38,110 bases of DNA. Origin: Candidatus Uhrbacteria bacterium (GTDB lineage Bacteria > Patescibacteriota > Patescibacteriia > JACQRZ01). Shown one piece after another: positions 1-15,595 of this stretch. A model generated the notes under the pieces. It made no database searches. It was not told the DNA's origin and worked only from the letters and a program-made list of their open reading frames with translations. Position 1 is the stretch's first letter. Every line of letters begins with the position of its first letter. The stretch lies in NCBI GenBank assembly GCA_016188385.1, contig JACPHV010000034.1, forward strand, positions 1-38,110, read 5' to 3'. The translations under genes and the position numbers were made by a program.

Positions 1-189
1 GAACGCGAGCGTACCGGCAAGAGCGACGATCAATAGCGCAACAAATAGGAATACAAAAAAATCAAACATCTTAAACGCGACGAAAACCAACACTCCGCCG
101 GTAAACAAGATGCCAAACTGCCGCACCGTGATGGGGCCTAAGATCTTATCTTCGCTTTCAATGAATTGTGGGACTGTGATCTGCTCCAT
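1..189 (-). CDS. PrgI-family (VirB3/TrbD-like) T4SS membrane protein, N-terminal part; runs off window edge
   Basis: Minus-strand translation from ATG at 189: MEQITVPQFIESEDKILGPITVRQFGILFTGGVLVFVAFKMFDFFVFLFVALLIVALAGTLAF..., typical of PrgI-family proteins. Confidence 0.75.
   Translation of the reverse strand, partial: MEQITVPQFIESEDKILGPITVRQFGILFTGGVLVFVAFKMFDFFVFLFVALLIVALAGTLAF
150..189. repeat. 40-bp direct repeat copy 1 (start of the PrgI-family gene)
   Basis: 38/40 identical to 406-445 (cttcgctttcaatgaattgtgg(g/a)ac(t/c)gtgatctgctccat). Confidence 0.9.
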
Positions 190-195
190 CTTTTA

Positions 196-204
196 TGGTA
201 TAAT
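196..204 (+). promoter_or_regulatory. Extended -10 promoter TGGTATAAT for tRNA-like RNA A
   Basis: TGnTATAAT; predicted start about 211-212, where the GGTGGA stem begins; no good -35. Confidence 0.5.
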
Positions 205-211
205 AATTCGC

Positions 212-296
212 GGTGGATTTCGAGGGCCGGGTCCGGGTGGTCCCGGGAGCAGACTTGCCATTTTGCTCTAGGGGTTCGACTCCCCCTCGGTCCACC
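212..296 (+). ncRNA. tRNA-like RNA A
   Basis: Cloverleaf-like: acceptor GGGCCGG(224-230)/TCGGTCC(287-293), D-stem CCGG/CCGG, hairpin AGCAGA-CTTGCCAT-TTTGCT, T-arm GGGG-TTCGACT-CCCC, A73 then CC. The leader GGTGGA also pairs with TCCACC. Confidence 0.5.
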
Positions 297-325
297 TTGA
301 CAAAAAAAATGTTGCGTGTTATTTT
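297..325 (+). promoter_or_regulatory. Promoter TTGACA-N17-TATTTT (extended -10 TGtTATTTT) for small RNA A
   Basis: TTGACA at 297-302, TATTTT at 320-325; predicted start about 332-333. Confidence 0.45.
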
Positions 326-332
326 GATAATG

Positions 333-399
333 AAATGGCAAGTCTGCTACGATCGGACACTATCCGTTCTCCTAGGAGCTCCTGAAAAGGAGCTTTTCT
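333..399 (+). ncRNA. Predicted small RNA A, complementary to tRNA-like RNA A
   Basis: 5' end AAATGGCAAGTCTGCT (333-348) is the exact reverse complement of 248-263; ends in terminator 377-399. Confidence 0.4.
377..399 (+). terminator. Rho-independent terminator
   Basis: AGCTCCT-GAAA-AGGAGCT followed by TTTCT. Confidence 0.65.
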
Positions 400-405
400 G
401 TATTT

Positions 406-445
406 CTTCGCTTTCAATGAATTGTGGAACCGTGATCTGCTCCAT
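406..445. repeat. 40-bp direct repeat copy 2 (duplicated start of the PrgI-family gene)
   Basis: 38/40 identical to 150-189; encodes MEQITVPQFIESE and then diverges. Confidence 0.9.
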
Positions 446-522
446 TACTATGACAGAATAACTTTTATAGTGTAGCATAATTGGAGATGATAAGCCTGAT
501 TCTCGCATCCAGTTGAGATCGA

Positions 523-550
523 ACAAAAACCCCCTTTACGGGGTTTTTGT
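523..550. terminator. Bidirectional rho-independent terminator
   Basis: acaaaaacccc-cttta-cggggtttttgt at the 3' end of the minus-strand 552-2801 gene. Confidence 0.8.
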
Positions 551-551
551 G

Positions 552-2801
552 CTATATACGAATCTGCTCATTTAATTCCAGAAGCGCTTCAAACTCTTCT
601 GCCGTGAGATACGGTTTGCCGGCGGCTTTTCTTTTCTCGATCACATCGGCGATATTGACGCCCGCGCCAAAGCTCTCCTTTCCGATCTCTTGATACAGTC
701 GCGACACTTCATTTTCTTTCCATGCCGCAATGCAGGACATTTTTTTCGTGTAGGAATCTTTTTCTATCAACGCAAACTTTTTCAATATCTTGCCTGCCGC
801 TTCTTCCGGATTGGGCGACAATCGGCGAAAATCCTTGAGTGTAATCACGCGCATCTCCTCCACCGCGTCAAGCAATCGCGGCGGAGCTTTGACATCGGAT
901 ACAGGCACCTTGCCGACAGTCGATCCGGGACGAATCTGTACGGGGATCCTTTTCACGTCTTTCCCTTGCATAGCAGAGGGGAGGGGCTGTATTGGTGAAA
1001 CCAATGGAGCAGGTCCATCAGACGGCTGTTCAGCCGTTTGAGTCCGCGTATCTGTTCCCTGTTTGCCGGATGGGGCGGAATTTTTGAATCCTGTACGCGC
1101 TGTATTGAGCTTGTTCTGGAGCGGTGATACCTCCTCCACGATTGTTGGAACACCGTTTTCATCCTCCTTGATAGAAAGCGGGGGTGGGGGCGGCGGAGGA
1201 GAGGGGGTAGACTTGGCAGGTGGAACAGGCGAGGCGGCAAGCGTTGAAGGCTGCGGCTCTTTGTCAGCGGCATCCGATTGAAGCTGTTCAGACACCATTT
1301 CTTCTTTGACTGGCTGACTCTGCGACGCAGACACGGATTCCTGATGAACCTCTTGCTGCCGTGTTGATATGTCAAGAACTTCTTTTCCCCTATCGGACAC
1401 CGTTGGAGCGTTCATGCTTTTTTTGATCGCGTCCAGCACTCTCTCCGCGTCGTGCGATGTCAAACCGATCCCGCCCTCTTCCACTGAATCCATGAGCCGC
1501 AATTTTGTCTGTGTGTCATTGCGGACATTTCTCAAGCGGGTGACTATACTTGTTCGCAGGCGTGAGGAGATATCCGGGGCAATCGCAAGCCCAACATCGG
1601 CAATGATCTCATCAGCGAGTTTGTCATAATCCTGTGGCGGCATAGGGATATATGATGGCTTAATGATGGAGTCATTGTTGTCTTCTCTTGCCATTTGGGC
1701 GGCAGGGGCTATTGATGTGGCAGAGAGCCCCTCTGTCGACTCTCTAACATCGACAAAATCGTCTACTGATGGAAACTCTTGCGGTACTGTTTTTTCCGAT
1801 ACCTCCATAGACGTGTTTTTGACTTCCGAGGGAGATTGACTCAATGTAGTGATCTGTTCAGCAACTGTTACTGCTGGCTCCCGTGATAGGTTCGCGGTCG
1901 CAGAAGCTCTTGCAAGCCGGGCGGCACTCACTTCTTTGATCTCATCTCGTGCGTAAGGAATAATTACCCAATCGGTAGGAGGAACCTTTGCCAAACTATC
2001 AGGAAAATTCTTCAAAGTATAATAGGCTTCAAACAACCTGCGGACAGCTTCTCTATTTTCTTCGGATAATTTTTTCGCATTTGGATTCTGTGTAATATAC
2101 TTCGCAATTGATAGCGACGATACCCCCTCTTTGTCGCTTGATGCCAACAGATCTCGTACCCACTCCAAGATACGAGGAGTGATCGGATCTGTTCCGATCT
2201 CCTCCTCGTTATCAAGCATTACCTGCTGAAGCTCTACGGGAAATGTCTCTTTACGCCGAATTATTGCGAAAATCAAAGCATTCAGCGCAATCAACGGCAT
2301 CGATTCTGTCAAACGCAAATATCCGACCAACTGTGTCTGAAAGATTTTTTTTATCTGTAACGCCTCTTTTTCGAAGTCAAGCATACGAAGTTTCTCAATG
2401 CCTTTTCTGAAGTTCTCTTCCATTTGAGAAATAAGGTAAAAATAAGTCCTGCTTTCATTGAGATCATCTTCTGTCCTCTTAAACTCGTTTTTATAATGCT
2501 GCCACTGATTGTCAAAATGCTCAGGGAATACGAGTACCGTATTTAACATCGTTAATCGAGAGAGTTCAGTCGCGAGTTCTGCGTCGCAGTTGAGTCGCTC
2601 TTTGATTACTGCCGTTAGTCCATCTACAGAAATCCGCATCGCAAATAAATCTCCCAATACGGTATCAAACGCTGCATCTTGTACTTCTGTCAGCGGATAC
2701 CGAAGATGGAGATTGTAGCGGAACTGAAAAAACTCATCAGACCATAATGCCTCTTGGATGTTTTCCGGTAGTGAATCGAGTTCTATGGAATATAATTTCA
2801 T
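552..2801 (-). CDS. Hypothetical protein (749 aa), proline-rich linker, co-directional with secretion-like genes
   Basis: Long ORF with PPPPPPP tract and conserved-looking C-terminal helical segment. Confidence 0.85.
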   Translation of the reverse strand: MKLYSIELDSLPENIQEALWSDEFFQFRYNLHLRYPLTEVQDAAFDTVLGDLFAMRISVDGLTAVIKERLNCDAELATELSRLTMLNTVLVFPEHFDNQWQHYKNEFKRTEDDLNESRTYFYLISQMEENFRKGIEKLRMLDFEKEALQIKKIFQTQLVGYLRLTESMPLIALNALIFAIIRRKETFPVELQQVMLDNEEEIGTDPITPRILEWVRDLLASSDKEGVSSLSIAKYITQNPNAKKLSEENREAVRRLFEAYYTLKNFPDSLAKVPPTDWVIIPYARDEIKEVSAARLARASATANLSREPAVTVAEQITTLSQSPSEVKNTSMEVSEKTVPQEFPSVDDFVDVRESTEGLSATSIAPAAQMAREDNNDSIIKPSYIPMPPQDYDKLADEIIADVGLAIAPDISSRLRTSIVTRLRNVRNDTQTKLRLMDSVEEGGIGLTSHDAERVLDAIKKSMNAPTVSDRGKEVLDISTRQQEVHQESVSASQSQPVKEEMVSEQLQSDAADKEPQPSTLAASPVPPAKSTPSPPPPPPPLSIKEDENGVPTIVEEVSPLQNKLNTARTGFKNSAPSGKQGTDTRTQTAEQPSDGPAPLVSPIQPLPSAMQGKDVKRIPVQIRPGSTVGKVPVSDVKAPPRLLDAVEEMRVITLKDFRRLSPNPEEAAGKILKKFALIEKDSYTKKMSCIAAWKENEVSRLYQEIGKESFGAGVNIADVIEKRKAAGKPYLTAEEFEALLELNEQIRI

Positions 2802-2821
2802 ACGGTCAAAATCTCAGGTGA

Positions 2822-5800
2822 TTAACCTACACGAGTCTTCTTCCATTTAATAATCTGATAAATCTCATCAAGCAATGCTCCGTCCTTCCCAAGCCTATTC
2901 TCAATCTGATGCATCAGGACGCCGGAAAGACCTGCCACGTTTGCGCTCGCGCGATCACCGTTTTTCGAAGCGCGCAAGATAGCTGACATGACATGCATTG
3001 CCATGGCTCCATTTGGCCCATCTTGCCGCAATTGTTCCGCCAATAACCGAGCCAGATCGCTGTCCTTATTCTGAAATATTTTATTATGCATGCCTGTGAG
3101 GAAGTACGGGGCAACATCGTCATCTTTCATAGCGTTAACGATTACTTGTTGATAGAATGTTTTATCCTCCGCCGACACATCTTTTCTGAAGTTGCCATCC
3201 ATGCCGATACCAAGATGATCGTCGGGGAATCCCCTGTTCATGCCAAGAACTTTGATAAATTGTTCGTAGTCTCGATTTGGACTAACGGATCCGTCATCTT
3301 GCCGTTCTTTGTGTTGGCCTTGAATTTCCATCCTGTTAAGCTCTTCTTCCGCGATTTCACGCGCTCTGTTTTCAACAATCGGATTGCTTTTCATTCGCAT
3401 CATCAGTTGCGCGGAAATAGCGGTGGGAAGCCGATTAATAGCTTTGAGTAAGCCCGCATTAAGGCTCTCCGGCCTTGTGAGCTTGCTTAGATCAATCCTG
3501 TTTTTATTTACCAGCTCGACCAATTTCTCCGGTGTCATACCAAAAGCTTGCGATGGGTATTGCTTATATACTTCGTAATCAAATGCCTCGACAGCAGCTC
3601 CGCCCGCGCCCTGTCTGACAAAATCTCTTCGCCCTCCTTCCACTTCCGAAGGGTCATACAGATTTCGTCGCATCATTTCTGTTTTGGCAGCCATTTGTTC
3701 AAGGTTTGAAAATCCCTTTGCGGTACCGTTCGCAATCGCCTTTACCACTTCATCACGCAAATTGCCAAATTTCTTTGCCGCCGCTTGAAGCGCTTCAAGC
3801 TCAACTTCCTGCCCCTCGAGCGTCAACCGATTTCCGAAATTTTGAGATCCTTTCAGAAAATCCCCGATAAAAGGAGCGATTATTGCGGGACCGCCGGCGA
3901 GACCTGCGAGTCCACCCCTAAGTACTGCCGCGGCAAATTCGGGAAATTCCATACGCGCCAAATCGGCTGTTGCTTTCCAATCCTCACCCTTTGCTTGCAC
4001 TTCCAACTTCTCTGCTGCGACTTCAGCTTTGATTGCTTCTCCGCGTAAACCATCCGCAAGTTTACCTCTCGCAGAACCCTTACCGGACTCTTCGTGTCGA
4101 ATAGCATCGTCAATTAACTCTTTGTCGGCGCGCAAAATCTCTGCTTCTCGTAATTTCTGTTTTTTCTTTTCGTCAGACATTTTCTCCGGCTCGGCTTCTA
4201 TCTTGCCTTTTTCTTCTTCTAATTGTTCTTCTAACCGAGCGATACGCGCTGCGATTTCTTTCCCTTCAGGAGTATCTTTGCCAAATTGAGGATCAAGCTT
4301 TTCGAGATTGATCATGGATTGGAACATCGCAATCTGATCTTGGCGTGCTTTGTTGCGTGCATCTCGTTCATTCTTTTCATCATCTGTTTCCTCCCCCTTT
4401 CCGGTCGACTCCTCAAGCAATCGTGCGCGTTCTCCAAGATAGTCCGAGTGTTTCTTCAGCGCACCCGTACCCTCAAACGCCGCAATATCAGCATCCACTT
4501 CTGCGACACTGAGCTTGAGACTATCTATTTCTTCTTCAGCTTTTCTGCGCTCTTCGAGTGATTTTGCCGGATCTTTCGTATCCGCCTCTAACTCATGAAT
4601 ACGCGCTTGAAGAGCGTCCCTTCTTTCTTCTAGTTTATGTTTATCGCCGCTCTCAATACTGACTGCGCGGTTATTCATATTCTGCGCTTCTTGTTTTCTC
4701 TCACCTGCTTCATTGCGCAAGTCCACGGATGTACCCATGTGTTGGCTCCTACGTTCCGCTGCCGATTCACGCGCTTTTGTGCCGAAGACAGGCACATCTT
4801 TCCACCAATTACGCAACGCCATGCCATATTTTGATGTCATGAGGGGTGTTCCAATAAACTGCTGCGCTAGTTCGCCTGGAAGTGAAATGGCTTTACCGGC
4901 GAGTTTCATCCCTGCGCTTACCTCCATACGCGCCTTCAGCTGCCGATCGTGCTCTCTTTGTTTCGAATACGCGCCCCAGCGATCTCGCGCCCAACGCATC
5001 GGTGACGGGCCCTTTTTGCCCGCGGCATAATCTTTCGCGCCTTGTATGACTCCACCGGCCATCTTGCCGCCTTCCACGCCAAGCTGTTGAGCTACCGCCA
5101 TACTGCCCAGGAGCATAACGATACCTAAAAAGAAGCCCAGCGTAGTCTGTGGCGTACCCAGCGCCGTACCAAGTTTATTCGGTATGGGGGATGTGGTAGA
5201 CGCGCTGACAGAACTGATTGTGCTCCCGATCTGCGGGACTCCTGTGGCTGATTGACTACTCGCCGCGAGTGTCGTAAAAGATAACCACAAAAAAAACAGC
5301 ATGACAGGACCTACGATGAGATAGTTGACAAATTGATCCCACCATTTCTTCGCGTATCCTTTATCATCCGGCAATGCCGCGAGAAAGAACGCCGCCGGAG
5401 ACAGCACAACGAGAAACCAAAGCGCCACGATACGGAAGACTAAAATAAACAGCATGACAACAACCACAATAAGAGCGATCACGTCAAACGCGAGCAATAC
5501 GATGAATGACGCGAGAACCTCCCAAACACCGACAGCCGCGGTTCCGGGCTGGGCTACATACTGCTGAAACTCCGCGATGCCGGTAATAGCCAAAAAATTG
5601 CCGCCGGCAGTGTTTTCGATCGCGCCGGTAAACGTCAGCATCACGACATTGGAAAAATCGATAAATATACCGGCAATCGTTTTTGAAAAATTGACCAGAA
5701 TCGCGGCGATGATAAACTTCGGCAAAGTCTTTGAGTAATGGTACTTTTCCTGCTGCAAGATGGTACCCACGGCTATCGCGAGCAAAACGATCACAAAAAA

Positions 5801-6157
5801 CATATTCATCACGTCCCGCACGATCTCCCATCCGCGCGTCACCGGAATGGAGTCAATAAAGGCCGTGTAGCGGGAAACTTCTACGATGAGAAAAACCACA
5901 TTGAGAAAAAGCCCGTGCAGCGCGTCAACAATCACGGCCACGATCCAACCTACACCGGACAACATTTGATCCTGGGCAATTTGCGCTGATAATGCCAGGC
6001 CGGCGGCAGCTCCGATTCCAATGAGAAGAGGGATGGCTGCATCAGCTCCGCGGGGAACAGCCAACACGCCAGCCGTCACGAGGCAGAGCAAAGCTGCCGG
6101 AGCGCCAAAGCGCCAGCGTTTTTGTGCTTTTAGGTATGTCGTGAAAAGTGTCAGCAT
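2822..6157 (-). CDS. VirB6/TrbL-like polytopic membrane protein with long charged coiled-coil C-terminal region
   Basis: Signal/TM-rich N-terminal ~370 aa with multiple TM helices, then long E/K/R-rich region. Confidence 0.7.
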   Translation of the reverse strand: MLTLFTTYLKAQKRWRFGAPAALLCLVTAGVLAVPRGADAAIPLLIGIGAAAGLALSAQIAQDQMLSGVGWIVAVIVDALHGLFLNVVFLIVEVSRYTAFIDSIPVTRGWEIVRDVMNMFFVIVLLAIAVGTILQQEKYHYSKTLPKFIIAAILVNFSKTIAGIFIDFSNVVMLTFTGAIENTAGGNFLAITGIAEFQQYVAQPGTAAVGVWEVLASFIVLLAFDVIALIVVVVMLFILVFRIVALWFLVVLSPAAFFLAALPDDKGYAKKWWDQFVNYLIVGPVMLFFLWLSFTTLAASSQSATGVPQIGSTISSVSASTTSPIPNKLGTALGTPQTTLGFFLGIVMLLGSMAVAQQLGVEGGKMAGGVIQGAKDYAAGKKGPSPMRWARDRWGAYSKQREHDRQLKARMEVSAGMKLAGKAISLPGELAQQFIGTPLMTSKYGMALRNWWKDVPVFGTKARESAAERRSQHMGTSVDLRNEAGERKQEAQNMNNRAVSIESGDKHKLEERRDALQARIHELEADTKDPAKSLEERRKAEEEIDSLKLSVAEVDADIAAFEGTGALKKHSDYLGERARLLEESTGKGEETDDEKNERDARNKARQDQIAMFQSMINLEKLDPQFGKDTPEGKEIAARIARLEEQLEEEKGKIEAEPEKMSDEKKKQKLREAEILRADKELIDDAIRHEESGKGSARGKLADGLRGEAIKAEVAAEKLEVQAKGEDWKATADLARMEFPEFAAAVLRGGLAGLAGGPAIIAPFIGDFLKGSQNFGNRLTLEGQEVELEALQAAAKKFGNLRDEVVKAIANGTAKGFSNLEQMAAKTEMMRRNLYDPSEVEGGRRDFVRQGAGGAAVEAFDYEVYKQYPSQAFGMTPEKLVELVNKNRIDLSKLTRPESLNAGLLKAINRLPTAISAQLMMRMKSNPIVENRAREIAEEELNRMEIQGQHKERQDDGSVSPNRDYEQFIKVLGMNRGFPDDHLGIGMDGNFRKDVSAEDKTFYQQVIVNAMKDDDVAPYFLTGMHNKIFQNKDSDLARLLAEQLRQDGPNGAMAMHVMSAILRASKNGDRASANVAGLSGVLMHQIENRLGKDGALLDEIYQIIKWKKTRVG

Positions 6158-6173
6158 GGATTTTCTATCTATC

Positions 6174-6202
6174 TTGACATCATTTTATTTTCAGTATATC
6201 AT
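6174..6202 (+). promoter_or_regulatory. Promoter TTGACA-N17-TATCAT for small RNA B
   Basis: TTGACA 6174-6179, TATCAT 6197-6202; predicted start about 6209-6210. Confidence 0.4.
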
Positions 6203-6209
6203 ACATTGT

Positions 6210-6281
6210 AAAGGCAGAACTCATACATCATGGGTTTGCTGCGTGTCAAACAAAGGGATTCCTTGAGAAAGGAATTCTTTT
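6210..6281 (+). ncRNA. Predicted small RNA B, complementary in blocks to tRNA-like RNA B
   Basis: AAAGGCAGAA (6210-6219) complementary to 6334-6343; TCATACATCA (6221-6230) to 6317-6326 with one G-U; GCTGCGTGTCAAA (6238-6250) to 6341-6353; ends in hairpin plus T-rich tail. Confidence 0.4.
6259..6281 (+). terminator. Rho-independent terminator of small RNA B
   Basis: ATTCCTT-GAGA-AAGGAAT followed by TCTTTT. Confidence 0.6.
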
Positions 6282-6291
6282 GTTTTATAAT
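6263..6291 (+). promoter_or_regulatory. Promoter TTGAGA-N17-TATAAT for tRNA-like RNA B
   Basis: TTGAGA 6263-6268, TATAAT 6286-6291; predicted start about 6298-6301. Confidence 0.6.
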
Positions 6292-6300
6292 AAAACCTAT

Positions 6301-6384
6301 GGTGGACCTGGGCCTGTGGTGTATGAAGTAACATTCTGCCTTTGACACGCAGCGAAACGGGTGCAAATCCCGTCGGGTCCACCA
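6301..6384 (+). ncRNA. tRNA-like RNA B (possible atypical tRNA) with CCA encoded
   Basis: Cloverleaf 6310-6381: acceptor GGGCCTG/CGGGTCC, U8, D-stem GTGT/ACAT with A14 and A21, anticodon arm CTGCC-TTTGACA-CGCAG (one C-C mismatch), T-arm ACGGG-TGCAAAT-CCCGT, A73, CCA. Confidence 0.55.
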
Positions 6385-6404
6385 CTTGGGATATGATTCT
6401 GGAG

Positions 6405-6428
6405 TCGGTGTGCATACGCCGATTTTTT
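6405..6428 (+). terminator. Rho-independent terminator of tRNA-like RNA B
   Basis: TCGGTGT-GCAT-ACGCCGA followed by TTTTTT. Confidence 0.8.
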
Positions 6429-6484: not shown

Positions 6485-9400
6485 CTAGAAAGGACAGGCA
6501 AACCTCCCTGCCGCGGGCAATGCGGCGCTCTCATCCACGCCGGAATGCTGACTCAAAGGAAGCGCCGCGTCACAGCGACCTTGTGTTTTTGGCGGCCATG
6601 TTGTCGGATTGATACCAATGCTATAATCCGCGCCACGTTTTGCCGCAAAGCTCGGGATATGCAAATCGCCGTTTGCTTTCTTCTCAATAGTGCCGCAGAC
6701 AGCAGACTTTGCTTCCCAGTTATCCATGACGTAGACGCAGATCGTCTTGCCAACCGGCGTATCGCGGTAGACTTTATTCATCAAAAACGGTTTATCAGCT
6801 GCGGTATTGCTGTATGCTATTGGTCCCGGCCGGTGATTTTTACCGGTTCCCTCTGTATCGCTATTCACAAGCTCGTCGCGGCTCGAAGGATAATCACCCC
6901 AATCAACAATAATTTTGCGTAAGGGAAGCTGATCAGGATTGGCATCAACGTAGAACTGAATGGCAACTTTTTGGTAGATGGTCCTTTTATTGTGCTCAAA
7001 AGTAAACTGATCCGCCGCTCCCCGCTTGAACCATTCAGTGGATGATGCCGACACGTTATATATCGTAGGCCGATTTGCTTGGGCACTCGTTTTGGAGGTA
7101 TCCCAGATACTCTGAAGGACAGATCCTTGGGACCCAGCGAAAGCACCATTCGTGTTAGGCCATGCGACTTTTTCATACTGTGAACCATTCCAATCCCATT
7201 TTTCATATACTTTCCCAAAAGTAGAGCTCTGAAGATTAGCTGCGCTATCAAAATAAAGATTCCTGTATGTGGCTAGTGGAGTATTACTATGCGGGGACGA
7301 GACTGCTTTGGGTGGCAAGATGGAGGATGGCGAGTTAGCGGGCGAACCGGCTTCATAAGTCCATGTCTCTATGCCAGGCGTTACACTTCCTGGTAATAAT
7401 GTATCCTTCCCTGAATACTGCGAGGACGCGATACCATATGAAGCATACTTGAGTTTATGTTGGCTATTCTCCGTGTAGAATTCATCTCTATCCCAGAGAT
7501 ACCTTTTCGCAAGATAACTTAATCTTGTGGTAAGTGTAGTCAGCGGATTTCCAGTGCCACCATCACCGATAAGAAAATTCTTTCCATCAACCGAAAGGTA
7601 TGGGTTTGCCTGCGTAAAGTCTTTATTGCCGACAGTTCCATATTTTGTAACTGCCCTGCCATCAGAACCAACGACCCTTAAGAGAGAGGTACAGTAATTT
7701 GTATATTCATCTTGAGCAAGATGATGGACGGTGTGATTAACTTTTTTGAAAGTAATTTTAATAGAGACGGCGACTGCTTCAGTTTTATTAGAACCCGACT
7801 TATCACAATATCTCCATCTCCATCCTCGCAAGATATCACCATCTACAACTGGTCCGACGACCATGAAATTTTTCTCTCTTTCACATACTACACTACTCCG
7901 ATCAAAAAAACTTTCCGTATTTGTAAACGCGCAAAGAGAAGATCCGCCGTTATTACTGGGGTCACACCAAGCTGTGCTTCTCCAATCATGTTGATAAAAC
8001 ATACCGACGGGTTTCTTGGGACTATCAGTGCGAGTTAATGTATTCCCGTTTTGACTGATATTCCAACCAGTAAGCAATCTATAATGCTCGCATTGCGTTG
8101 TACCTGAATTGCAATCCCAAAACCATTGTCCTCCATTAAATATATCTCTAAACTCTACTCTGGTTGCGGCTTCTATAGTATATTCAATCTTTTCAATCGC
8201 ATCAAAATGAATTTCTGGCCCATTTTGATTAAAACTATTACCTGAAAGACCTTTGGGATTTTCTGTGCCATTCAACGGAATAACCGCAAACGAGTCATCC
8301 GTACCACGGCCACCGGCAACAATACCCCAAATAAGTCCTCCCGCTGCACCGATTAACCCACCACCGATACATCCTATCGCGTTTCCTATTACAGGAACCA
8401 CAGATCCAACGGCCGCTCCGACACCACAACCTCCAGAGCCGGCCATAATCATAACAGCGGCAGTTGCACCAACCTGATCCACGATATTCGATTTTAGCTC
8501 AGTAGCTACAATAAGAATGTTTTGATCAGTATTCAAGGCCGCTCTTGTTTTCTCATCGTCATTTTTACTCATATTAGCGGTAGAATCAGACCCAGCGCGC
8601 CATGAAGAGGAATTCCTGGTCGTACAGGTGGCGGCATAATCACAAGCCCCTGATGCATATCCTTCATACAATGCGTGGGACCTCGTGGCTGCATTACTAT
8701 AGGGATTAAATGAATATCCACTTGAGCTTGTTTTGTCTGCTGCGCCTACCATCGACGAGGTCTCATTTGCATTGCTTTTACCGACGCACACATATATGTT
8801 ATGCGGATTAGTGCCTTTATAGGCCATTATGTCGCCACCAATATCTGCACCAGCTATACCGCTCATAGACTGATTCGCGGGTTTGTCGATAGGATGCCAG
8901 AGAAGGCACGCGTACCGGTAGGGGTTATAAATGCCATCTGGGGTAGAAGCTGTCCCCAATTCATAAGATCCTTGCTCGGTCTCTGAAACAGTTGTTGTAA
9001 ATGTCGCGAGCGTCAAGGGGTCCGATGCCGATGTCCACTGTTTTTCAAATTTACTCTTAAATCGCGGGTACGGTTCAAGGCAATAGCCGTACAAACCGAC
9101 ATTGAGCGTCTTTTGCTTTCTAAAGATTCCTTCTCCTTCACCCCCTGTCACATAATTGCACGCATCGTTCCATGTGGTATCGCCCACTCGATATGGCGCG
9201 TCAACGCGCGGGTATAGGCGGCATGAATTTGCTACTTTATAGCCCTGAGTATCTATCGTATTTTGAAGATTAGCTTTCGAATCCGCGCCTCCGAGACCAT
9301 TTTGCGCGTCAAGCATCTGGCCCCAGTCAAAGAAACTGTCGCGGCTCAACGGATCCCGATTTTCTCCCGCGGCAAACTGCAAATTTGGGTGCGCGTAGCC

Positions 9401-12400
9401 GGAAAGCATGGTATAGGAGAGATCAAGCGCGGCCGCCGATGCAACGTTTTGCGTTTTTGGCGTAAGAAATGCCTCCTGAAGAGCAGAAGTATCCTTTGCC
9501 CGACATTTCGAAACAGAATTGCTGTTCCAAAAACATTCAATATGCTGGTTGCACGAGTATTCATCTTGTGATTGCGCCGTCGCCTCGCAGAATGCTTTTA
9601 TGCGCGTCGCAAAATTCGGATTATCCTGCGTAACGCACGCGGCCCCGCCGCAATTCGAATTATCCGTGCATCTTTGCAAGGAATTATCGCATACTCCCAC
9701 GAACACGCACTGCACAGGCGCAATCGCGCCGACTACTCCGACACAATCCGCGTCGATATTGCAAGCTGAAGTAGAAATGACTGCTCCCTTGCAAGCCTTT
9801 TTACCGGAAAAAGCAAGACTCTGGCATCCGCCAAATTCATTTTCAATCAAACAGGGCAAACGCTCTAAGCATTGCGTGGCATCGCCTGATTGTATCTCGG
9901 AAGCGCAGACGAGCGGCACGTTGCACGCCCGATCAAGATTTGCTTTCAGCACAACATTGGCGTCTCGCAATTGCGCGCCGTATAGATGGTTTGCCGCGCC
10001 TTCGACGGGATCAAATGCTTCCTTGCTTGTATTATTCGCATCGGCTCGATTTACCGTCACCGCGCGCTTGGAGGTAAAGTATGTATTGTAATAGTACGTG
10101 GAATTATACGTCAACGCGGGAGCATCCTTGCCTGTGCCTCGGAAAAGGATGCAACCCTTTTCCAGGTCGACTTCATTACGGCACTCTTCAGTGCCGGCTT
10201 TTTCTGAAGACTTAAGGTAATAATATCGTGTCTGACACTGGCTTCCCTGTTGTCCGCGGACCGGATCGAAGCGACCATAGTCAGATATCAAAGTACCTTT
10301 CAAACCTTTCGGGTCAGAATCTATGCAGTATTCGTTATGCGGCCCGCAGGGACGGCAATCCGGATCTTGGTACTCGGTACAGCCGCTGACTTTGGCGATG
10401 CATTGCTTTGCGTACGACACCGGACCCTGATCTAACCAATATGATGTTGCAACAGCGCTCGGCAAAGCAGCGGAGCTTGTTCCTGCCACATACGGACCAA
10501 GGGGACTCATAGGCGATTGAGGTATGCCATAGGGATCGGATTCTACACCGCAACTGATATATGCGTCACACTTTTCCGTATAGACAGGAAGGTTGGTCTC
10601 GCCGGACGGCCGCGGATACTTGGCATTAAGTCCCGCACATTCAGTATCATTCTTGCAAGCGATCAATGGGTAGTGTATCGCGTTCAAAGTCGAGCTGCTT
10701 AGGATATTTTCAGACACTTTGCCGCATGCCTTATAAAACCAACCGCCGCCTTTCACGCGAGGATCGCCTTGATTCGTGTCAAAAAATTGACACACATTTT
10801 TGCCCGGATCTTTCAAATACCGCTTCGCTGTCGCCGTATCATAGGCCTTACAGCCAATCTCGGCTTCTTTGCAGATTCCGCCTTTATAAGCATTGCCATT
10901 GGCAAACTCCGCCGGTGTGGAGCTTGCCGCAATCATTTCCGGCGTGATCTTGTAGTAGACAGTCTGCCATTCTTCTTTTCTGCTCGTAGCCGCGTACTTC
11001 GATTGGATATCTAACGTCGTGGTGGCGGTGTTGCCTGTAATGCTGATGCCTTCTTGCGTATTTTTCGGATATCCGTACGCGGTGCAATGATTGTTTGCTC
11101 CCGTACACCGCGCTTTCGGTTCGTCGACGAGAAATTGTCCTTGTGCTCTTCGATAAATCGCAAACAAACGGAGCGAACCACTGCCTGAAGGGATATATTC
11201 ATCATAACATTCATACGGTTCGCCTGGCTGGGCCGTATGCGTCGCTGTATTACTGTAGCCTGGCCATGGAGCGGCGTCCCACGTTGCGGGATCTTGATCA
11301 TTGCTACATCGTTTGATATGAGAAGGAAGATCAGTACTGTATACAATCGGCTGGCTCGGATATATTCCTATACTCGTGCTGATAGAGCTTAACGTAAGGC
11401 TATAATCTCCCAATGAATAATCCTTGCATCCCACAAACGCGGCGGGGCATACGTTTTGAAACCCATAGTGCGCGACGCGCTTGTTTTGCCCGTCCACAAA
11501 CGGCTGGCCATTGCGGTCAGTGTAAAATTGACAGCCTGTCTGATAGATGTCATCGGATTCATCAGTCGTAGATGAGCCGGCGATCCTGCAATCCGCCGGC
11601 CGCGCAGCTTCAGTCGCGATAGAAGTATCGATCGCGTACACGGTCTTGCCTGATGCTTCTTTCAAATAGATATTGTCAACATACACGGAATTATCAATAC
11701 CCGACCCAAGCGCGCTTGCGCTTCCTTTGGCAAATACAAGTGAAAGAGTGGATGTCGCGGTTGAATTCGCCGGAGAACCAGCGGCAGTGAATGTAATATA
11801 GTGCCATTGTGGCGAGCTGAATGTAGCGCTGCCCAAGTTCACATCCACGCCGCCATCCAAATCTTTAAGAGTTGCCGTCACCGTATTTGATGACTGCGCT
11901 CGAGCGGTAAGCGTAAAGGTGTATGTATACTCTTTTTGTATCTCCACATTCCGCTCCACTTCATAGGACGTTGGCGCGCCGGACTTTTTCTGGATACGCA
12001 TACTCCTGCCGCCGACATGTTCCGATTCCAAAGAGGTATCGGCGGCATACGTTGTGACGCCTTGAGGTACCTGCCAGCTGCCTACTCCTTGCGATTGGTC
12101 AAACACATCCCGCACCGCGAGCTTATAATTGCCTGCCTGTGTCGATTGATAGGTACGGCATCCTTTGTATTGCGCGGCGCACTGCGAGCTCAAACTCGGA
12201 CTAAACGCGTATTGCTGTTGATCGATAGAACGGCGGTATTCGGCGCAGTCGTCAGTCTGATAGATAAGTTTATCGATCAGCCGATATGATACAGTGCCGT
12301 CGGAAGCGATAAACTCACGACAGGCAAACGGAACCGAGGTGTTATAGAGTTGATAGGCAAAGACTGATTCATCGCATACGACAAGATTATCCGCTATTGC

Positions 12401-15400
12401 TTTCGTGCTTGTCGCCGTGCAATCGTATCCCGTGACGCAATCGGGGACGCTTGAGTTTGTGCCGTTGGGCTTGAGAGAATACGGAACAGGCTGTCTGCCT
12501 CCTTTTTCCGATCCGAAATAACTGTAAAACACGGTCCGTTGATCGGCCGCTTGCTGTTCGCACGAAATCGCGGACGTGAAATACGTCCGAGCTTCCGCGC
12601 CGCTTCTCTCCTGCGCGAGATTCGTGAACTCTTCGCAGCCGGAGCTTTGCGCGTTGCATTGTCCCACTCCCGCCGCCTTAAAAGCGTGAAACGATGTTGA
12701 TTCAGCGGGACTGAAAAAGCTGGGCTGCACAAGATAGTTGTCCAAACCGACGCATTGTCCGCTCACGCACGCAAGCGGGGCTGTCGCGCTGACCGGAGAT
12801 TCAAATCTGCTTGTCGGATTATACATCTGGCAGCCAACGGCATCGCTCGTACAATGCAGGGCGTATCGTTGACACTCGCCTCTTTGCCACGCGCCCGGCT
12901 CGTCGCACTTGAGATAGGACGGCGCTATTTTCAAATAATCTCCATTTCCAAGATCGCGGCAGCCTTCAAATTCAGCCTCGCAACGTTCGGCTCCATAGGA
13001 GAGAAAGACGCGTTGAGTGCTTGTCGCGTTCCATTCTTGCGCGGTCGTAAAGGCGGTTCCATCAGGACGCTCCTCGCGGATCGTGCCGCACAGAGCGACT
13101 TTCGCGTGATAAGCGGTATTTTTCCAAGAAGTATCTTCCAAGTCCGTTGTGGTGGCGTTGCTCACCCAGAGTTGTCGCAGGGTTTTATTTTCGAGAAGTT
13201 GTCGTTTGTTGACGTATTTGACCTTTTGAGGGCCTGTTTCTTCCTTGACTTCTGTCTTGAGCACGCATGTCTCATACTGCCTCCGCACGGTTGAAAGCCA
13301 GCTGCACCCCGCGTTTTCAAGTTTGCACACATTGCCGCTCTGATCAGCGGCAAACGCAATGGGCGGCAGACTATCTTTGAGGTAAAACTGCGTGCGGCTC
13401 GGCTTTCCATCGCGGTCAAGTTCGGCAAATGTGTCGCACGAGGCGAATTGTGGCGCGCATTGAGTCCCCTTTATGGCGAACACCTTCTTTTCTTCTATGC
13501 AATACCCATAATCATCATTGCTGGTCGCTTTATTGCCGCGCTCCCAATCCTGCGGGGTGCCTTCGTGCAACCATGTGCGTTCGTCTACGCATACTTCCGG
13601 ACGGTAGATAGGATCCGCTTCTCGTATCGCGCCTCCTCCCGCGTCCTGCCATGCCGCGGGTCCATACCCTTTAAGCTCGCACCGCACAGCAGGCAGCTTA
13701 AGTACCCAGTTTGGATCGATAAGACGGTAAAAGGGGCTGCTTGGTTCATTAAACCCGCTGACAAGATCCTGCAACGTACAGTCGCGGCCGGAACATGCTT
13801 CATTAGCATGTTCTTTGATATAGAGCGCGGTGAGTTCCCACGCAACAGGCAAGACTCGATATTTCCGTAAAACCACCATGGAGTGGTAGGGATAGCTCGC
13901 GCGAAAATCCGTTGGTTCCACTTGCCTGCTCGTATAGCCGAATATGCCAAGCGGATTTAATCCTACCGAGCCGCCGGTATCCCGATATTTTTTCATTGCT
14001 TCACCGATAGTCAGCTTTTCTTGGATTGCTCTGCTAAATGCCGGCCCAAGAGTGCAGGCATTGGGGAATGACCTGCAGTCTTGAGATTGAAATTCAACCA
14101 AAATGTTGAGCATATCACCGCTCGTAGTCTTCACTTGCGCGAGGCTCGCGCTTCTGCGCGCAATGACTTGCTGCGCTCCGGCGTATTGCGGCGCGGCGGA
14201 CGGATTATAGATCACCTCGGAGCTGATCGATGTCGGGGTGAATTCCGCGCCTTGCGCGCCTGGCCCGCCGGCAAGCTGATTTACTTCATCCGCTTTCTTG
14301 CGAAGACCCTCAAAGTAAAGTTTTGTGGTGTTGCCGATCAGCGTGCTTACAAACGTAAAAACCAAATCAGCTCCGTCAACGAGCGCTTTGCCGGTCAGAC
14401 GCTTGCCGACATCTTTTTCTTCCTTGACACTTTCTTCATAGACTTTTTTCAAATAAGGCGCGGGAGTCATGATACCGCCGGCAAGATCCGTTACCGGCTT
14501 GAAGCCTTCTTGTTCGGCAAGCCATCGCTTAATCTTTTCGTTGTTCACGATTTCCAATTTTTCTTCGGTAATGTTTTGGTTGATCGCCAAAGCGATACCA
14601 AGATGGCTTTTGCGCGGATCAACGGCGTCGGAAAGCGTCTGCCATGGATTACGCCCTGTTTGCGCCACAATATCCGAAATCGCGACACCGGTGCCCTGGA
14701 TAGTTGCTGTCCAATTGGTAAATAATTCGGAAACTTTGCAGACCGGTTTGTCTTGTCCAAACGGAGCCGCCAATCCAAGTCCGAGATTAAATTCAAGACC
14801 AAACGATGGATTGCACGCGCGGCGCAAGATAGATGCCGCTTTTGGCGAAAGCGCGCCCGCGCGGTTGCGTTGATATTTGACAAAACGCTCTCCTTCGTTA
14901 GCATTAAATTGACCGATGCGCGCCCGAACTGCGGCAGCTCTGTCGCGCAGACCATCAGCTTGGTTATCCATCTCGAGTTGCGTATCATACTGATCGCGCA
15001 GCCTATCGCATTCTTCTTTGGTATCATTGGCTTGCGCTTGTTCGTCCGTCATACCGCCTGAATAATATTTTTCACATTCTTTTCCCCCCCAGTCCCTATC
15101 CAATTCCGCTCGAAAATCCTCGCTTTGTTGTTCGCTTTCACCCGCGATTTCGTCGTATCTGTCTGCATCTTTACCAAGACCCTTGATCCCCGCTTCGCTC
15201 GATCGATTCATAGTCTCAACCGTAAGGAAATATCCTTCCGCGGCGCCGCTTGCGGCATTGTCCAAGACATCAATGCCAAATTGCGTCCAGTCGCGCTGTT
15301 CCCACACTCCCTGGCGGCCCACCAAGCCATTCGTCATAAAATGCATAAATTGGTCCGAGGAATCTTTCGCCAATGTTTGAAGCGCTCCCTTTAAGGCAAC

Positions 15401-15595
15401 GTACAATCCGTTTTCTATTATTCCAAATGCCAAGTCTGCCCAAAAATTCTTTTCTTCTACCGCATCCGCAACTGGCACAATCGCGCTCGCTTGTCTTGGC
15501 GCGCCCAATACCAGTACCGGCATGATGAGTAATGCGGCGAGGACGGCGAGTATGGTTTTTTTGAAACGTGACAATGGCATGGGTGGAAATTTCAT
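6485..15595 (-). CDS. Giant secreted Cys-rich surface protein (3036 aa)
   Basis: Single ORF with N-terminal signal peptide (KKTILAVLAALLIMPVLVLGAPRQASA) and many recurring C-x4-6-G-C-x2-[YFL] motifs. Confidence 0.85.
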   Translation of the reverse strand: MKFPPMPLSRFKKTILAVLAALLIMPVLVLGAPRQASAIVPVADAVEEKNFWADLAFGIIENGLYVALKGALQTLAKDSSDQFMHFMTNGLVGRQGVWEQRDWTQFGIDVLDNAASGAAEGYFLTVETMNRSSEAGIKGLGKDADRYDEIAGESEQQSEDFRAELDRDWGGKECEKYYSGGMTDEQAQANDTKEECDRLRDQYDTQLEMDNQADGLRDRAAAVRARIGQFNANEGERFVKYQRNRAGALSPKAASILRRACNPSFGLEFNLGLGLAAPFGQDKPVCKVSELFTNWTATIQGTGVAISDIVAQTGRNPWQTLSDAVDPRKSHLGIALAINQNITEEKLEIVNNEKIKRWLAEQEGFKPVTDLAGGIMTPAPYLKKVYEESVKEEKDVGKRLTGKALVDGADLVFTFVSTLIGNTTKLYFEGLRKKADEVNQLAGGPGAQGAEFTPTSISSEVIYNPSAAPQYAGAQQVIARRSASLAQVKTTSGDMLNILVEFQSQDCRSFPNACTLGPAFSRAIQEKLTIGEAMKKYRDTGGSVGLNPLGIFGYTSRQVEPTDFRASYPYHSMVVLRKYRVLPVAWELTALYIKEHANEACSGRDCTLQDLVSGFNEPSSPFYRLIDPNWVLKLPAVRCELKGYGPAAWQDAGGGAIREADPIYRPEVCVDERTWLHEGTPQDWERGNKATSNDDYGYCIEEKKVFAIKGTQCAPQFASCDTFAELDRDGKPSRTQFYLKDSLPPIAFAADQSGNVCKLENAGCSWLSTVRRQYETCVLKTEVKEETGPQKVKYVNKRQLLENKTLRQLWVSNATTTDLEDTSWKNTAYHAKVALCGTIREERPDGTAFTTAQEWNATSTQRVFLSYGAERCEAEFEGCRDLGNGDYLKIAPSYLKCDEPGAWQRGECQRYALHCTSDAVGCQMYNPTSRFESPVSATAPLACVSGQCVGLDNYLVQPSFFSPAESTSFHAFKAAGVGQCNAQSSGCEEFTNLAQERSGAEARTYFTSAISCEQQAADQRTVFYSYFGSEKGGRQPVPYSLKPNGTNSSVPDCVTGYDCTATSTKAIADNLVVCDESVFAYQLYNTSVPFACREFIASDGTVSYRLIDKLIYQTDDCAEYRRSIDQQQYAFSPSLSSQCAAQYKGCRTYQSTQAGNYKLAVRDVFDQSQGVGSWQVPQGVTTYAADTSLESEHVGGRSMRIQKKSGAPTSYEVERNVEIQKEYTYTFTLTARAQSSNTVTATLKDLDGGVDVNLGSATFSSPQWHYITFTAAGSPANSTATSTLSLVFAKGSASALGSGIDNSVYVDNIYLKEASGKTVYAIDTSIATEAARPADCRIAGSSTTDESDDIYQTGCQFYTDRNGQPFVDGQNKRVAHYGFQNVCPAAFVGCKDYSLGDYSLTLSSISTSIGIYPSQPIVYSTDLPSHIKRCSNDQDPATWDAAPWPGYSNTATHTAQPGEPYECYDEYIPSGSGSLRLFAIYRRAQGQFLVDEPKARCTGANNHCTAYGYPKNTQEGISITGNTATTTLDIQSKYAATSRKEEWQTVYYKITPEMIAASSTPAEFANGNAYKGGICKEAEIGCKAYDTATAKRYLKDPGKNVCQFFDTNQGDPRVKGGGWFYKACGKVSENILSSSTLNAIHYPLIACKNDTECAGLNAKYPRPSGETNLPVYTEKCDAYISCGVESDPYGIPQSPMSPLGPYVAGTSSAALPSAVATSYWLDQGPVSYAKQCIAKVSGCTEYQDPDCRPCGPHNEYCIDSDPKGLKGTLISDYGRFDPVRGQQGSQCQTRYYYLKSSEKAGTEECRNEVDLEKGCILFRGTGKDAPALTYNSTYYYNTYFTSKRAVTVNRADANNTSKEAFDPVEGAANHLYGAQLRDANVVLKANLDRACNVPLVCASEIQSGDATQCLERLPCLIENEFGGCQSLAFSGKKACKGAVISTSACNIDADCVGVVGAIAPVQCVFVGVCDNSLQRCTDNSNCGGAACVTQDNPNFATRIKAFCEATAQSQDEYSCNQHIECFWNSNSVSKCRAKDTSALQEAFLTPKTQNVASAAALDLSYTMLSGYAHPNLQFAAGENRDPLSRDSFFDWGQMLDAQNGLGGADSKANLQNTIDTQGYKVANSCRLYPRVDAPYRVGDTTWNDACNYVTGGEGEGIFRKQKTLNVGLYGYCLEPYPRFKSKFEKQWTSASDPLTLATFTTTVSETEQGSYELGTASTPDGIYNPYRYACLLWHPIDKPANQSMSGIAGADIGGDIMAYKGTNPHNIYVCVGKSNANETSSMVGAADKTSSSGYSFNPYSNAATRSHALYEGYASGACDYAATCTTRNSSSWRAGSDSTANMSKNDDEKTRAALNTDQNILIVATELKSNIVDQVGATAAVMIMAGSGGCGVGAAVGSVVPVIGNAIGCIGGGLIGAAGGLIWGIVAGGRGTDDSFAVIPLNGTENPKGLSGNSFNQNGPEIHFDAIEKIEYTIEAATRVEFRDIFNGGQWFWDCNSGTTQCEHYRLLTGWNISQNGNTLTRTDSPKKPVGMFYQHDWRSTAWCDPSNNGGSSLCAFTNTESFFDRSSVVCEREKNFMVVGPVVDGDILRGWRWRYCDKSGSNKTEAVAVSIKITFKKVNHTVHHLAQDEYTNYCTSLLRVVGSDGRAVTKYGTVGNKDFTQANPYLSVDGKNFLIGDGGTGNPLTTLTTRLSYLAKRYLWDRDEFYTENSQHKLKYASYGIASSQYSGKDTLLPGSVTPGIETWTYEAGSPANSPSSILPPKAVSSPHSNTPLATYRNLYFDSAANLQSSTFGKVYEKWDWNGSQYEKVAWPNTNGAFAGSQGSVLQSIWDTSKTSAQANRPTIYNVSASSTEWFKRGAADQFTFEHNKRTIYQKVAIQFYVDANPDQLPLRKIIVDWGDYPSSRDELVNSDTEGTGKNHRPGPIAYSNTAADKPFLMNKVYRDTPVGKTICVYVMDNWEAKSAVCGTIEKKANGDLHIPSFAAKRGADYSIGINPTTWPPKTQGRCDAALPLSQHSGVDESAALPAAGRFACPF

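What the first reader, a model, noticed from the sequence alone, without database searches (positions are those of the whole stretch)
199..6428. Candidate new system: two independent paired RNA modules (tRNA-like RNA plus anti-anticodon-arm small RNA) within one secretion-like operon
Modules A (199-399) and B (6174-6428) share the same parts although their sequences differ: a GGTGGA...TCCACC-closed tRNA-like RNA starting just after a good -10 box; a second promoter that fires at the first base of a sequence complementary to that RNA's own anticodon region; and a hairpin terminator ending the small RNA. The order differs (A: tRNA-like first; B: small RNA first). Specific complementarity kept while sequence differs suggests co-evolving partners, for example antisense control of a tRNA mimic, a decoy for anticodon nucleases, or a mobile element that uses a tRNA-like handle. 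Function is inference only.
Basis: partly seen in the sequence, partly recalled or inferred. Interest (0 to 1): 0.8.

Follow-up and report, generated by a model that had tools for sequence, protein, structure and literature searches.

The report
tRNA-like RNA with matching antisense RNA
Some tiny groundwater bacteria carry small RNA-only gene pairs, one making a tRNA-like RNA built to accept alanine and the other a small RNA that fits that tRNA's anticodon and D arms; the two sequences have changed together through evolution, which points to an undescribed way of controlling, and possibly detoxifying, a tRNA.

Summary
Modules A and B each pair a tRNA-like gene with a promoter-driven, terminator-ended small RNA complementary to its anticodon arm. 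Relatives confirm it. I found 34 tRNA-like genes, in 22 of 389 genomes of the same bacterial class (Patescibacteria: Magasanik-, Uhr-, Kuenenbacteria) plus two further records; none among about 350 genomes of other classes nor in IMG/VR. All 34 have a linked complementary small RNA, upstream, downstream or on the opposite strand.

Pairing covaries. In 20 B-type members, 215 of 220 cells at positions 33-43 pair, with several Watson-Crick types at most stem positions. Swapped partners do not fit. The small RNA has a fixed plan: anti-anticodon-arm segment, hairpin complementary to the D arm, second anti-anticodon segment, terminator. The tRNA-like RNA is a covariation-supported cloverleaf with an enlarged anticodon loop, mostly non-alanine anticodons, and an invariant alanine-type acceptor (G3:U70, A73).

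"Within one secretion-like operon" is incidental: those genes run on the other strand, and relatives sit beside groEL, sufB, enolase and others.

Best reading: an RNA-only pair in which an antisense RNA holds an alanine-accepting, potentially miscoding tRNA inactive (toxin-antitoxin-like). Antisense control is well supported; toxicity is inference.

The parts
196..204 (+). Module A: extended -10 promoter (TGGTATAAT) of the tRNA-like gene
   Evidence: sequence; scored
212..223 (+). Module A: 5' leader GGTGGATTTCGA that pairs with the 3' end TCCACC (clamp)
224..294 (+). Module A: tRNA-like body; acceptor GGGCCGG/TCGGTCC with G3:U70 and A73; 7-bp anticodon stem with 8-nt loop CUUGCCAU (254-261)
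   Evidence: syntenic homologue in G004
297..325 (+). Module A: promoter of the small RNA, TTGACA-17-TATTTT
   Evidence: sequence; G004 homologue has TTGACA-16-TATAAT
332..400 (+). Module A: antisense small RNA; 333-348 complements 248-263; hairpin 354-366 faces the D arm
375..397 (+). Module A: intrinsic terminator of the small RNA
   Evidence: sequence, fold
6174..6202 (+). Module B: promoter of the small RNA, TTGACA-17-TATCAT
6209..6286 (+). Module B: antisense small RNA: E5 (6210-6219), D-arm-complementary hairpin (about 6220-6237), E3 (6238-6250), terminator (6248-6286)
6263..6291 (+). Module B: promoter of the tRNA-like gene, TTGAGA-17-TATAAT, overlapping the terminator of the small RNA
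6301..6309 (+). Module B: 5' leader GGTGGACCT, pairs with GGTCCACC and competes with the acceptor stem
   Evidence: predicted gain 12.0 kcal/mol
6310..6384 (+). Module B: tRNA-like body; acceptor GGGCCTG/CGGGTCC with G3:U70, A73, CCA; 4-bp anticodon stem (6336-6339/6349-6352) and 9-nt loop CUUUGACAC
6400..6428 (+). Module B: terminator-like hairpin behind the tRNA-like gene
   Evidence: sequence only

Best explanation
Each module is an RNA-only two-gene unit. One gene makes a cloverleaf RNA with an alanine-type acceptor (G3:U70, A73) but a divergent anticodon arm and usually a non-alanine anticodon. The other, from a near-consensus promoter, makes a dedicated antisense RNA. In B-type units this RNA grips the anticodon loop and both strands of the anticodon stem with two segments, and the D arm with the hairpin between them; in A-type units one segment covers the 5' side and loop of the anticodon arm. 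Shown: the pair, its covariation, its class-wide but patchy spread and its constant linkage. Inferred: the small RNA binds in trans and keeps the tRNA-like RNA unprocessed or unable to decode, helped by a 5' leader that competes for the acceptor strand. Inferred further: the free tRNA would be charged with alanine and would misread other codons or shift frame, so the pair behaves like an RNA-RNA toxin-antitoxin unit.
For: E3 pairs positions 33-43 in 215 of 220 cells over 20 members, with three or four Watson-Crick types at most of positions 38-43; own score 25.6 against 13.4 swapped. E5 15.9 against 5.6. D-arm pairing: 0 of 20000 permutations reach the observed mean. Cloverleaf 96.5% paired, covariation above all shuffles. 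G3:U70 in 16 of 16 tRNA-like hits of a pattern that left both bases free, and in a G347 member with another acceptor, GGGGCGA/TCGCTCC. AlaRS uses G3:U70 and A73 and is listed with no anticodon determinant (PMC9976931). Small-RNA promoters beat tRNA-like promoters, 10.6 against 8.4 of 12 matches, stronger in 22 of 25. All 34 tRNA-like genes have a linked small RNA in varied order, including opposite-strand in G039. Several orthogonal pairs per genome, patchy spread and a decayed copy in G001 resemble toxin-antitoxin units.
Against: No transcript, charging, toxicity or binding data. 8-9-nt anticodon loops might not decode at all. Modules lie beside housekeeping genes and not in mobile elements, unlike many addiction modules. 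Val-to-Ala miscoding would be mild. The leader clamp rests on secondary-structure energies, and its leader-trailer pairing is only moderately above control in members not selected for it (12.6 against 8.8). RNAduplex energies alone do not always rank the own partner first (15 of 32).
Confidence: 0.5

Rival explanations
1. Regulated mistranslation: the tRNA-like RNA is a beneficial, conditionally released alanine tRNA that diversifies proteins under stress; the small RNA is its off switch and nothing is toxic.
For: Same anatomy as the favoured reading; conserved U33, A37 and tRNA-core residues suggest use on the ribosome.
Against: Patchy presence and loss (22 of 389 genomes, decayed copy in G001) and several orthogonal copies per genome fit an addiction-type unit better than a core regulator.
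Confidence: 0.2
2. Bipartite functional RNA: the two RNAs form one complex whose joint structure does the work, in the manner of a T-box stem holding a tRNA or a two-piece tmRNA.
For: The small RNA touches the tRNA at the anticodon and D arms at once, like T-box Stem I, which contacts anticodon and elbow (PMC4919913); constant E5-hairpin-E3 spacing of 25-36 nt.
Against: No tmRNA-like reading frame seen; genome has an ordinary tmRNA. Small RNAs usually have the stronger promoter, suggesting excess and not 1:1 assembly.
Confidence: 0.15
3. Alanine donor outside translation (for example cell-wall or lipid aminoacylation), controlled by the small RNA.
For: Alanine acceptor and odd anticodon arm; pseudo-tRNAs with roles outside translation are known (PMC3399842); one copy lies beside a gene that reads like murE in G004.
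Against: Neighbouring genes otherwise unrelated; strong conservation of U33-NNN-A37 and T/D-loop residues would not be needed.
Confidence: 0.1
4. Decoy or immunity device against anticodon nucleases: the tRNA-like RNA is bait and the small RNA shields or senses it.
For: The loop UUGACA equals the canonical tRNA-Val(GAC) loop of the same genome, as bait would.
Against: No nuclease, ligase or defence gene recurs next to the modules; no copies in IMG/VR.
Confidence: 0.07
5. Mobile element carrying a tRNA-like handle.
For: Module A lies between two copies of a 41-bp prgI start; module positions differ between genomes; modules recombine (G301).
Against: The syntenic module A of G004 lacks the repeat; no recombinase among the neighbours scanned, no viral copies.
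Confidence: 0.05
6. Chance arrangement or assembly artefact.
For: None beyond the general risk in AT-rich intergenic DNA.
Against: Covariation across 15 families, swap and permutation controls, canonical-tRNA controls.
Confidence: 0.01

Closest known systems
T-box riboswitch (Stem I)
   Same: An RNA hairpin that recognises one tRNA by pairing with its anticodon and touching the elbow or D-arm region, followed by an intrinsic terminator.
   Different: Acts in trans by gene order (also downstream or on the opposite strand); pairs with the whole anticodon arm and the D arm; no Rfam T-box match; no antiterminator that reads the CCA end seen; its target is a special tRNA-like RNA and not a housekeeping tRNA.
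RNA-RNA toxin-antitoxin systems (type VIII, such as CreTA)
   Same: Both partners are RNAs, linked, with an effect on tRNA function proposed.
   Different: CreT sequesters a tRNA and CreA works through Cascade (PMC12737573); here the putative toxin is itself a tRNA and the antitoxin is a direct antisense RNA. Toxicity untested.
Pseudo-tRNAs such as tRNA-Other of Bacillus cereus
   Same: A tRNA-like gene with unusual features beside the normal tRNA set.
   Different: tRNA-Other has no dedicated antisense partner described in the paper read and carries a Trp anticodon; here an alanine acceptor and a co-evolving small RNA are constant.
tmRNA
   Same: Alanine-type acceptor with G3:U70 and a T arm.
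   Different: Normal anticodon-arm position, about 72 nt, no reading frame; tmRNA model scores below cut-off; the genome has a separate tmRNA.
ColE1-type and other co-evolving antisense RNA pairs
   Same: Antisense partners whose loops change together so that copies stay orthogonal.
   Different: The target here is a tRNA-like RNA and the antisense has a permuted, hairpin-centred layout. From own knowledge, not tested.

Membership tests
Canonical elongator tRNA | Cloverleaf with conserved core residues (U8, A14, G19, A21, T-loop) and A73 | tested here: met
   22 B-type sequences: T8, G19, T33, C55, A57 and A72 (numbering of the first sequence) invariant, A14 and A21 at least 90%; structure 96.5% paired with covariation
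Canonical elongator tRNA | 7-nt anticodon loop on a 5-bp stem | tested here: not met
   B-type: 4-bp stem and 9-nt loop; A-type: 8-nt loop
tRNA-Ala | G3:U70 and A73 | tested here: met
   16 of 16 tRNA-like hits of a pattern with free bases 3 and 70; 22 of 22 in the alignment, in which U70 was partly selected; host tRNA-Ala genes have the same GGGCC/GGTCC
tRNA-Ala | Alanine anticodon (NGC) | tested here: not met
   Mostly GAC-type loops UUGACA; A-type GCC, GUC, GCU, ACC; AGC in G004-B and CGC in G006 are exceptions. The reading frame in 9-nt loops is uncertain
T-box riboswitch | cis leader of the regulated gene | tested here: not met
   Small RNA is downstream in G000-A, G004-A and two G289 copies, and on the opposite strand in G039
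T-box riboswitch | Match to the Rfam T-box family | tested here: not met
   No T-box hit at E up to 0.5 in eight loci nor at gathering score in the window
T-box riboswitch | Senses aminoacylation through the NCCA end | not testable with these tools
   No conserved UGGN bulge noticed by eye; needs biochemistry
tmRNA | tRNA-like domain plus mRNA-like reading frame, Rfam RF00023 over cut-off | tested here: not met
   17.7 bits for B, 30.7 for a G289 copy, cut-off 47; separate tmRNA at 127.8 bits
RNA-RNA toxin-antitoxin (type VIII-like) | Two linked RNAs, one acting as antidote to the other | tested here: inconclusive
   Linkage and specific complementarity met (34 of 34); the antidote effect cannot be tested here
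RNA-RNA toxin-antitoxin (type VIII-like) | Toxin RNA stops growth when free | not testable with these tools
   Needs expression in a laboratory strain
Mobile element | Defined ends, target duplication or recombinase | tested here: not met
   Repeat in G000-A but not in syntenic G004-A; diverse housekeeping neighbours

The most novel reading that the evidence does not exclude
A new class of RNA-only toxin-antitoxin unit: the toxin is a real, aminoacylated tRNA (alanine on foreign anticodons) and the antitoxin is a permuted antisense RNA that captures the anticodon arm and D arm at once, with specificity between paralogues kept by co-evolution.
Probability: 0.35. Interest if true: 0.95.

Novelty: categorically new. 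Interest (0 to 1): 0.86.

Why it matters
Dedicated antisense control of a tRNA by a linked, co-evolving RNA is not a described regulatory or addiction mechanism, as far as the papers searched here show. Because AlaRS is not known to read the anticodon, an alanine-type acceptor is what evolution could use to let anticodons drift, so the pair makes regulated or toxic miscoding directly testable with two short RNAs and no protein. It also gives a class of uncultured bacteria a transferable genetic part: orthogonal tRNA and anti-tRNA pairs.

Tried and rejected
Mobile insertion with target duplication: the 41-bp prgI repeat around module A looked like one, but the syntenic module in G004 lacks it. 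Secretion-system link: neighbours in relatives are unrelated. Viral carriage: 92 pattern hits in IMG/VR, none with the antisense partner in the loci checked. Spread beyond the class: the pattern gave one canonical-looking tRNA-Ala and one non-tRNA match in other classes. Split tmRNA: ordinary tmRNA present. A first E5 test with the wrong register gave no signal and was corrected. RNAduplex ranking was uninformative, probably because members share GC-rich stretches. In some searches minus-strand canonical tRNA controls were read on the wrong strand; the oriented repeat gave the same result. In one search the automatic promoter score for the G000-A small RNA picked a poor -35; by eye it is TTGACA at 297-302. 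A conserved hairpin at 494-552 was tested as a third antisense RNA; no partner found.

Full report
WHAT IS THERE. The window is contig C9 of a 1.03-Mb, 46-contig genome. Related records that carry a title are Candidatus Magasanikbacteria, Uhrbacteria and Kuenenbacteria; Magasanikbacteria belong to the Parcubacteria group of Patescibacteria, and the class name ABY1 is my own knowledge. Each has a tRNA-like gene and a small RNA with its own promoter and terminator; the small RNA is complementary to the tRNA-like anticodon arm. In A the match is a perfect 16-mer. In B two segments of 10 and 13 nt cover the 5' side, loop and 3' side.

THE tRNA-LIKE RNA. The true acceptor stems are GGGCCGG/TCGGTCC (A) and GGGCCTG/CGGGTCC (B), each with G3:U70 and A73. 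The host's own tRNA-Ala genes have the same GGGCC...GGTCC ends. A search that left bases 3 and 70 free returned 16 tRNA-like hits, all G3:U70, plus two non-tRNA matches. A second module in G347 has a different acceptor (GGGGCGA/TCGCTCC) and still G3:U70. On 22 B-type sequences the cloverleaf is 96.5% paired, with a covariation score no shuffle reaches, against 25-54% paired when slid. The anticodon stem has 4 bp and the loop 9 nt in B-type; the loop has 8 nt in A-type. In the register used, position 33 is U in all 20 B-type members and 37 is A in 18 of 20. Anticodon-like triplets are mostly GAC; others are GAU, GGU, AGC, GCA, GCG, CGC, CGU in B-type and GCC, GUC, GCU, ACC in A-type. Which triplet would face the ribosome in a 9-nt loop is uncertain. 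A canonical tRNA-Val(GAC) exists in the same genome (L005), so B is an extra gene.

THE SMALL RNA. B-type: promoter TTGACA-15 to 19-TATAAT-like, segment E5, hairpin, segment E3, terminator; E5 begins 25-36 nt before E3. E3 covers U33 through position 43. E5 covers the 5' strand. The hairpin faces the D arm. A-type: one segment against the 5' strand and loop, a hairpin facing the D loop, terminator. Because E5 and E3 can also pair with each other, the small RNA resembles an inside-out anticodon arm whose flanks match the loop. I infer that it docks along the anticodon-D stack and can open the stem by strand exchange.

STATISTICS. Own against swapped partners: anticodon-arm score 28.3 against 16.6, own first or tied first in 23 of 25; E3 25.6 against 13.4 with 215 of 220 cells paired; E5 15.9 against 5.6; D arm 15.8 against 11.9, 0 of 20000 permutations. 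Canonical tRNAs of G000: mean 17.5. Changes between G000-A and G004-A: AGCAGACTTGCCATTT with AAATGGCAAGTCTGCT becomes AGTAAACTTGTCATTT with AAATGACAAGTTTGCT, two double changes and one G-U.

DISTRIBUTION. Two strict patterns give 22 of 389 genomes of the class, in 15 families, a lower bound; two more records came from the GTDB scan. In all I count 34 tRNA-like genes, and every one has a linked small RNA: usually upstream, downstream in at least four, on the opposite strand behind a shared terminator in G039. In about 350 genomes of other classes the pattern gave only one canonical-looking tRNA-Ala and one non-tRNA match. No copy with a partner was seen in viral contigs. Some genomes have three or four pairs (G301, G289, G357). 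Module A is syntenic at prgI in G004. In the same-genus genome G001 the prgI site is empty and a decayed A-type copy without anticodon arm lies nearby: modules are lost. In G301 two adjacent modules share identical 3' halves, so modules recombine.

CONTEXT. In the window the neighbours are a prgI-like gene (PF12666, below its cut-off), two unassigned long proteins and a 3036-aa protein with a carbohydrate-binding domain, all on the minus strand. In relatives they are groEL (twice), sufB, pyruvate kinase, enolase, a KaiC/DnaB-type ATPase, a HEPN protein, a NUDIX protein and others. There is no recurring protein partner: the unit is RNA only.

LEADER CLAMP. Transcripts appear to start at GGTGGA (inferred from the -10 boxes). 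The leader pairs with the 3' end and often contains GGACC, which pairs with GGUCC without the G:U of the true acceptor. The predicted gain averages 9 kcal/mol over 32 members. In members found without using the leader, pairing with a different trailer is seen in about half (GGGCGT/ACGCCC, GTGTG/CACAC, GCACAT/ATGTGC), mean 12.6 against 8.8 swapped: moderate support. The small-RNA hairpin also matches the acceptor 5' strand and D-arm 5' strand in several members, the very strand such a clamp would free.

MECHANISM. Shown: two linked RNA genes, covarying complementarity, alanine acceptor, closer-to-consensus small-RNA promoter (10.6 against 8.4 of 12 matches, 22 of 25). Inferred: transcription, binding, inhibition. 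AlaRS identity rests on G3:U70 and A73 with no anticodon element listed (PMC9976931), so free tRNA-like RNA should be charged with alanine whatever its anticodon and could miscode; errors by E. coli AlaRS are described there as poorly tolerated. Patchiness, loss, multiple orthogonal copies and constant linkage then favour an RNA-RNA toxin-antitoxin-like unit over a housekeeping regulator, but I hold this at about one third. Antisense control as such I hold at about 0.8.

KNOWN SYSTEMS. T-box Stem I measures tRNA from anticodon to elbow (PMC4919913) and is the best structural analogy, yet the cis-leader criterion and the Rfam match are not met. CreTA is the best functional analogy (PMC12737573), yet there the tRNA is the victim and the antitoxin needs Cascade. 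tRNA-Other of B. cereus (PMC3399842) is the best analogy for a tRNA-like extra gene. Literature searches found no dedicated antisense RNA of this kind; the library is open-access only, so novelty is not proven.

Noticed in passing
window 149-189 and 405-445: 41-bp direct repeat (95%) of the first 13 codons of the prgI-like gene on either side of module A; absent in G001 and G004, so a local later duplication or a repeat lost elsewhere.
   Followed up: yes
window 494-552: Hairpin GATTCTCGCATCCAGTTGAGATC followed by a terminator, conserved in G004 downstream of module A; looks like another small RNA or part of the terminator of the neighbouring operon. No complementary partner in G000, G001 or G004.
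   Followed up: partly
L033 1020-1075 (G001): Decayed A-type tRNA-like copy that keeps leader, acceptor and T arm but has lost the anticodon arm: module loss in the same genus.
   Followed up: partly
L084 / L215 (G301 C9): Two adjacent modules with identical T arm, acceptor 3' strand and terminator; the B-type copy now has an acceptor mismatch, a sign of recent recombination between modules.
   Followed up: partly
D and T loops of members G000-B, G357-C21, G131, G019, G029, G039 (alignment A1): T loop reads TGCRA in place of TTCRA together with a D loop that lost one of the two Gs, an apparent co-change at the tRNA elbow.
   Followed up: no
L217 2239-4800 (G357): sufB gene carries Hint and LAGLIDADG matches, probably an intein.
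   Followed up: no
window 6485-15595: 3036-aa minus-strand protein with only one carbohydrate-binding domain match; probably a giant surface protein.
   Followed up: no
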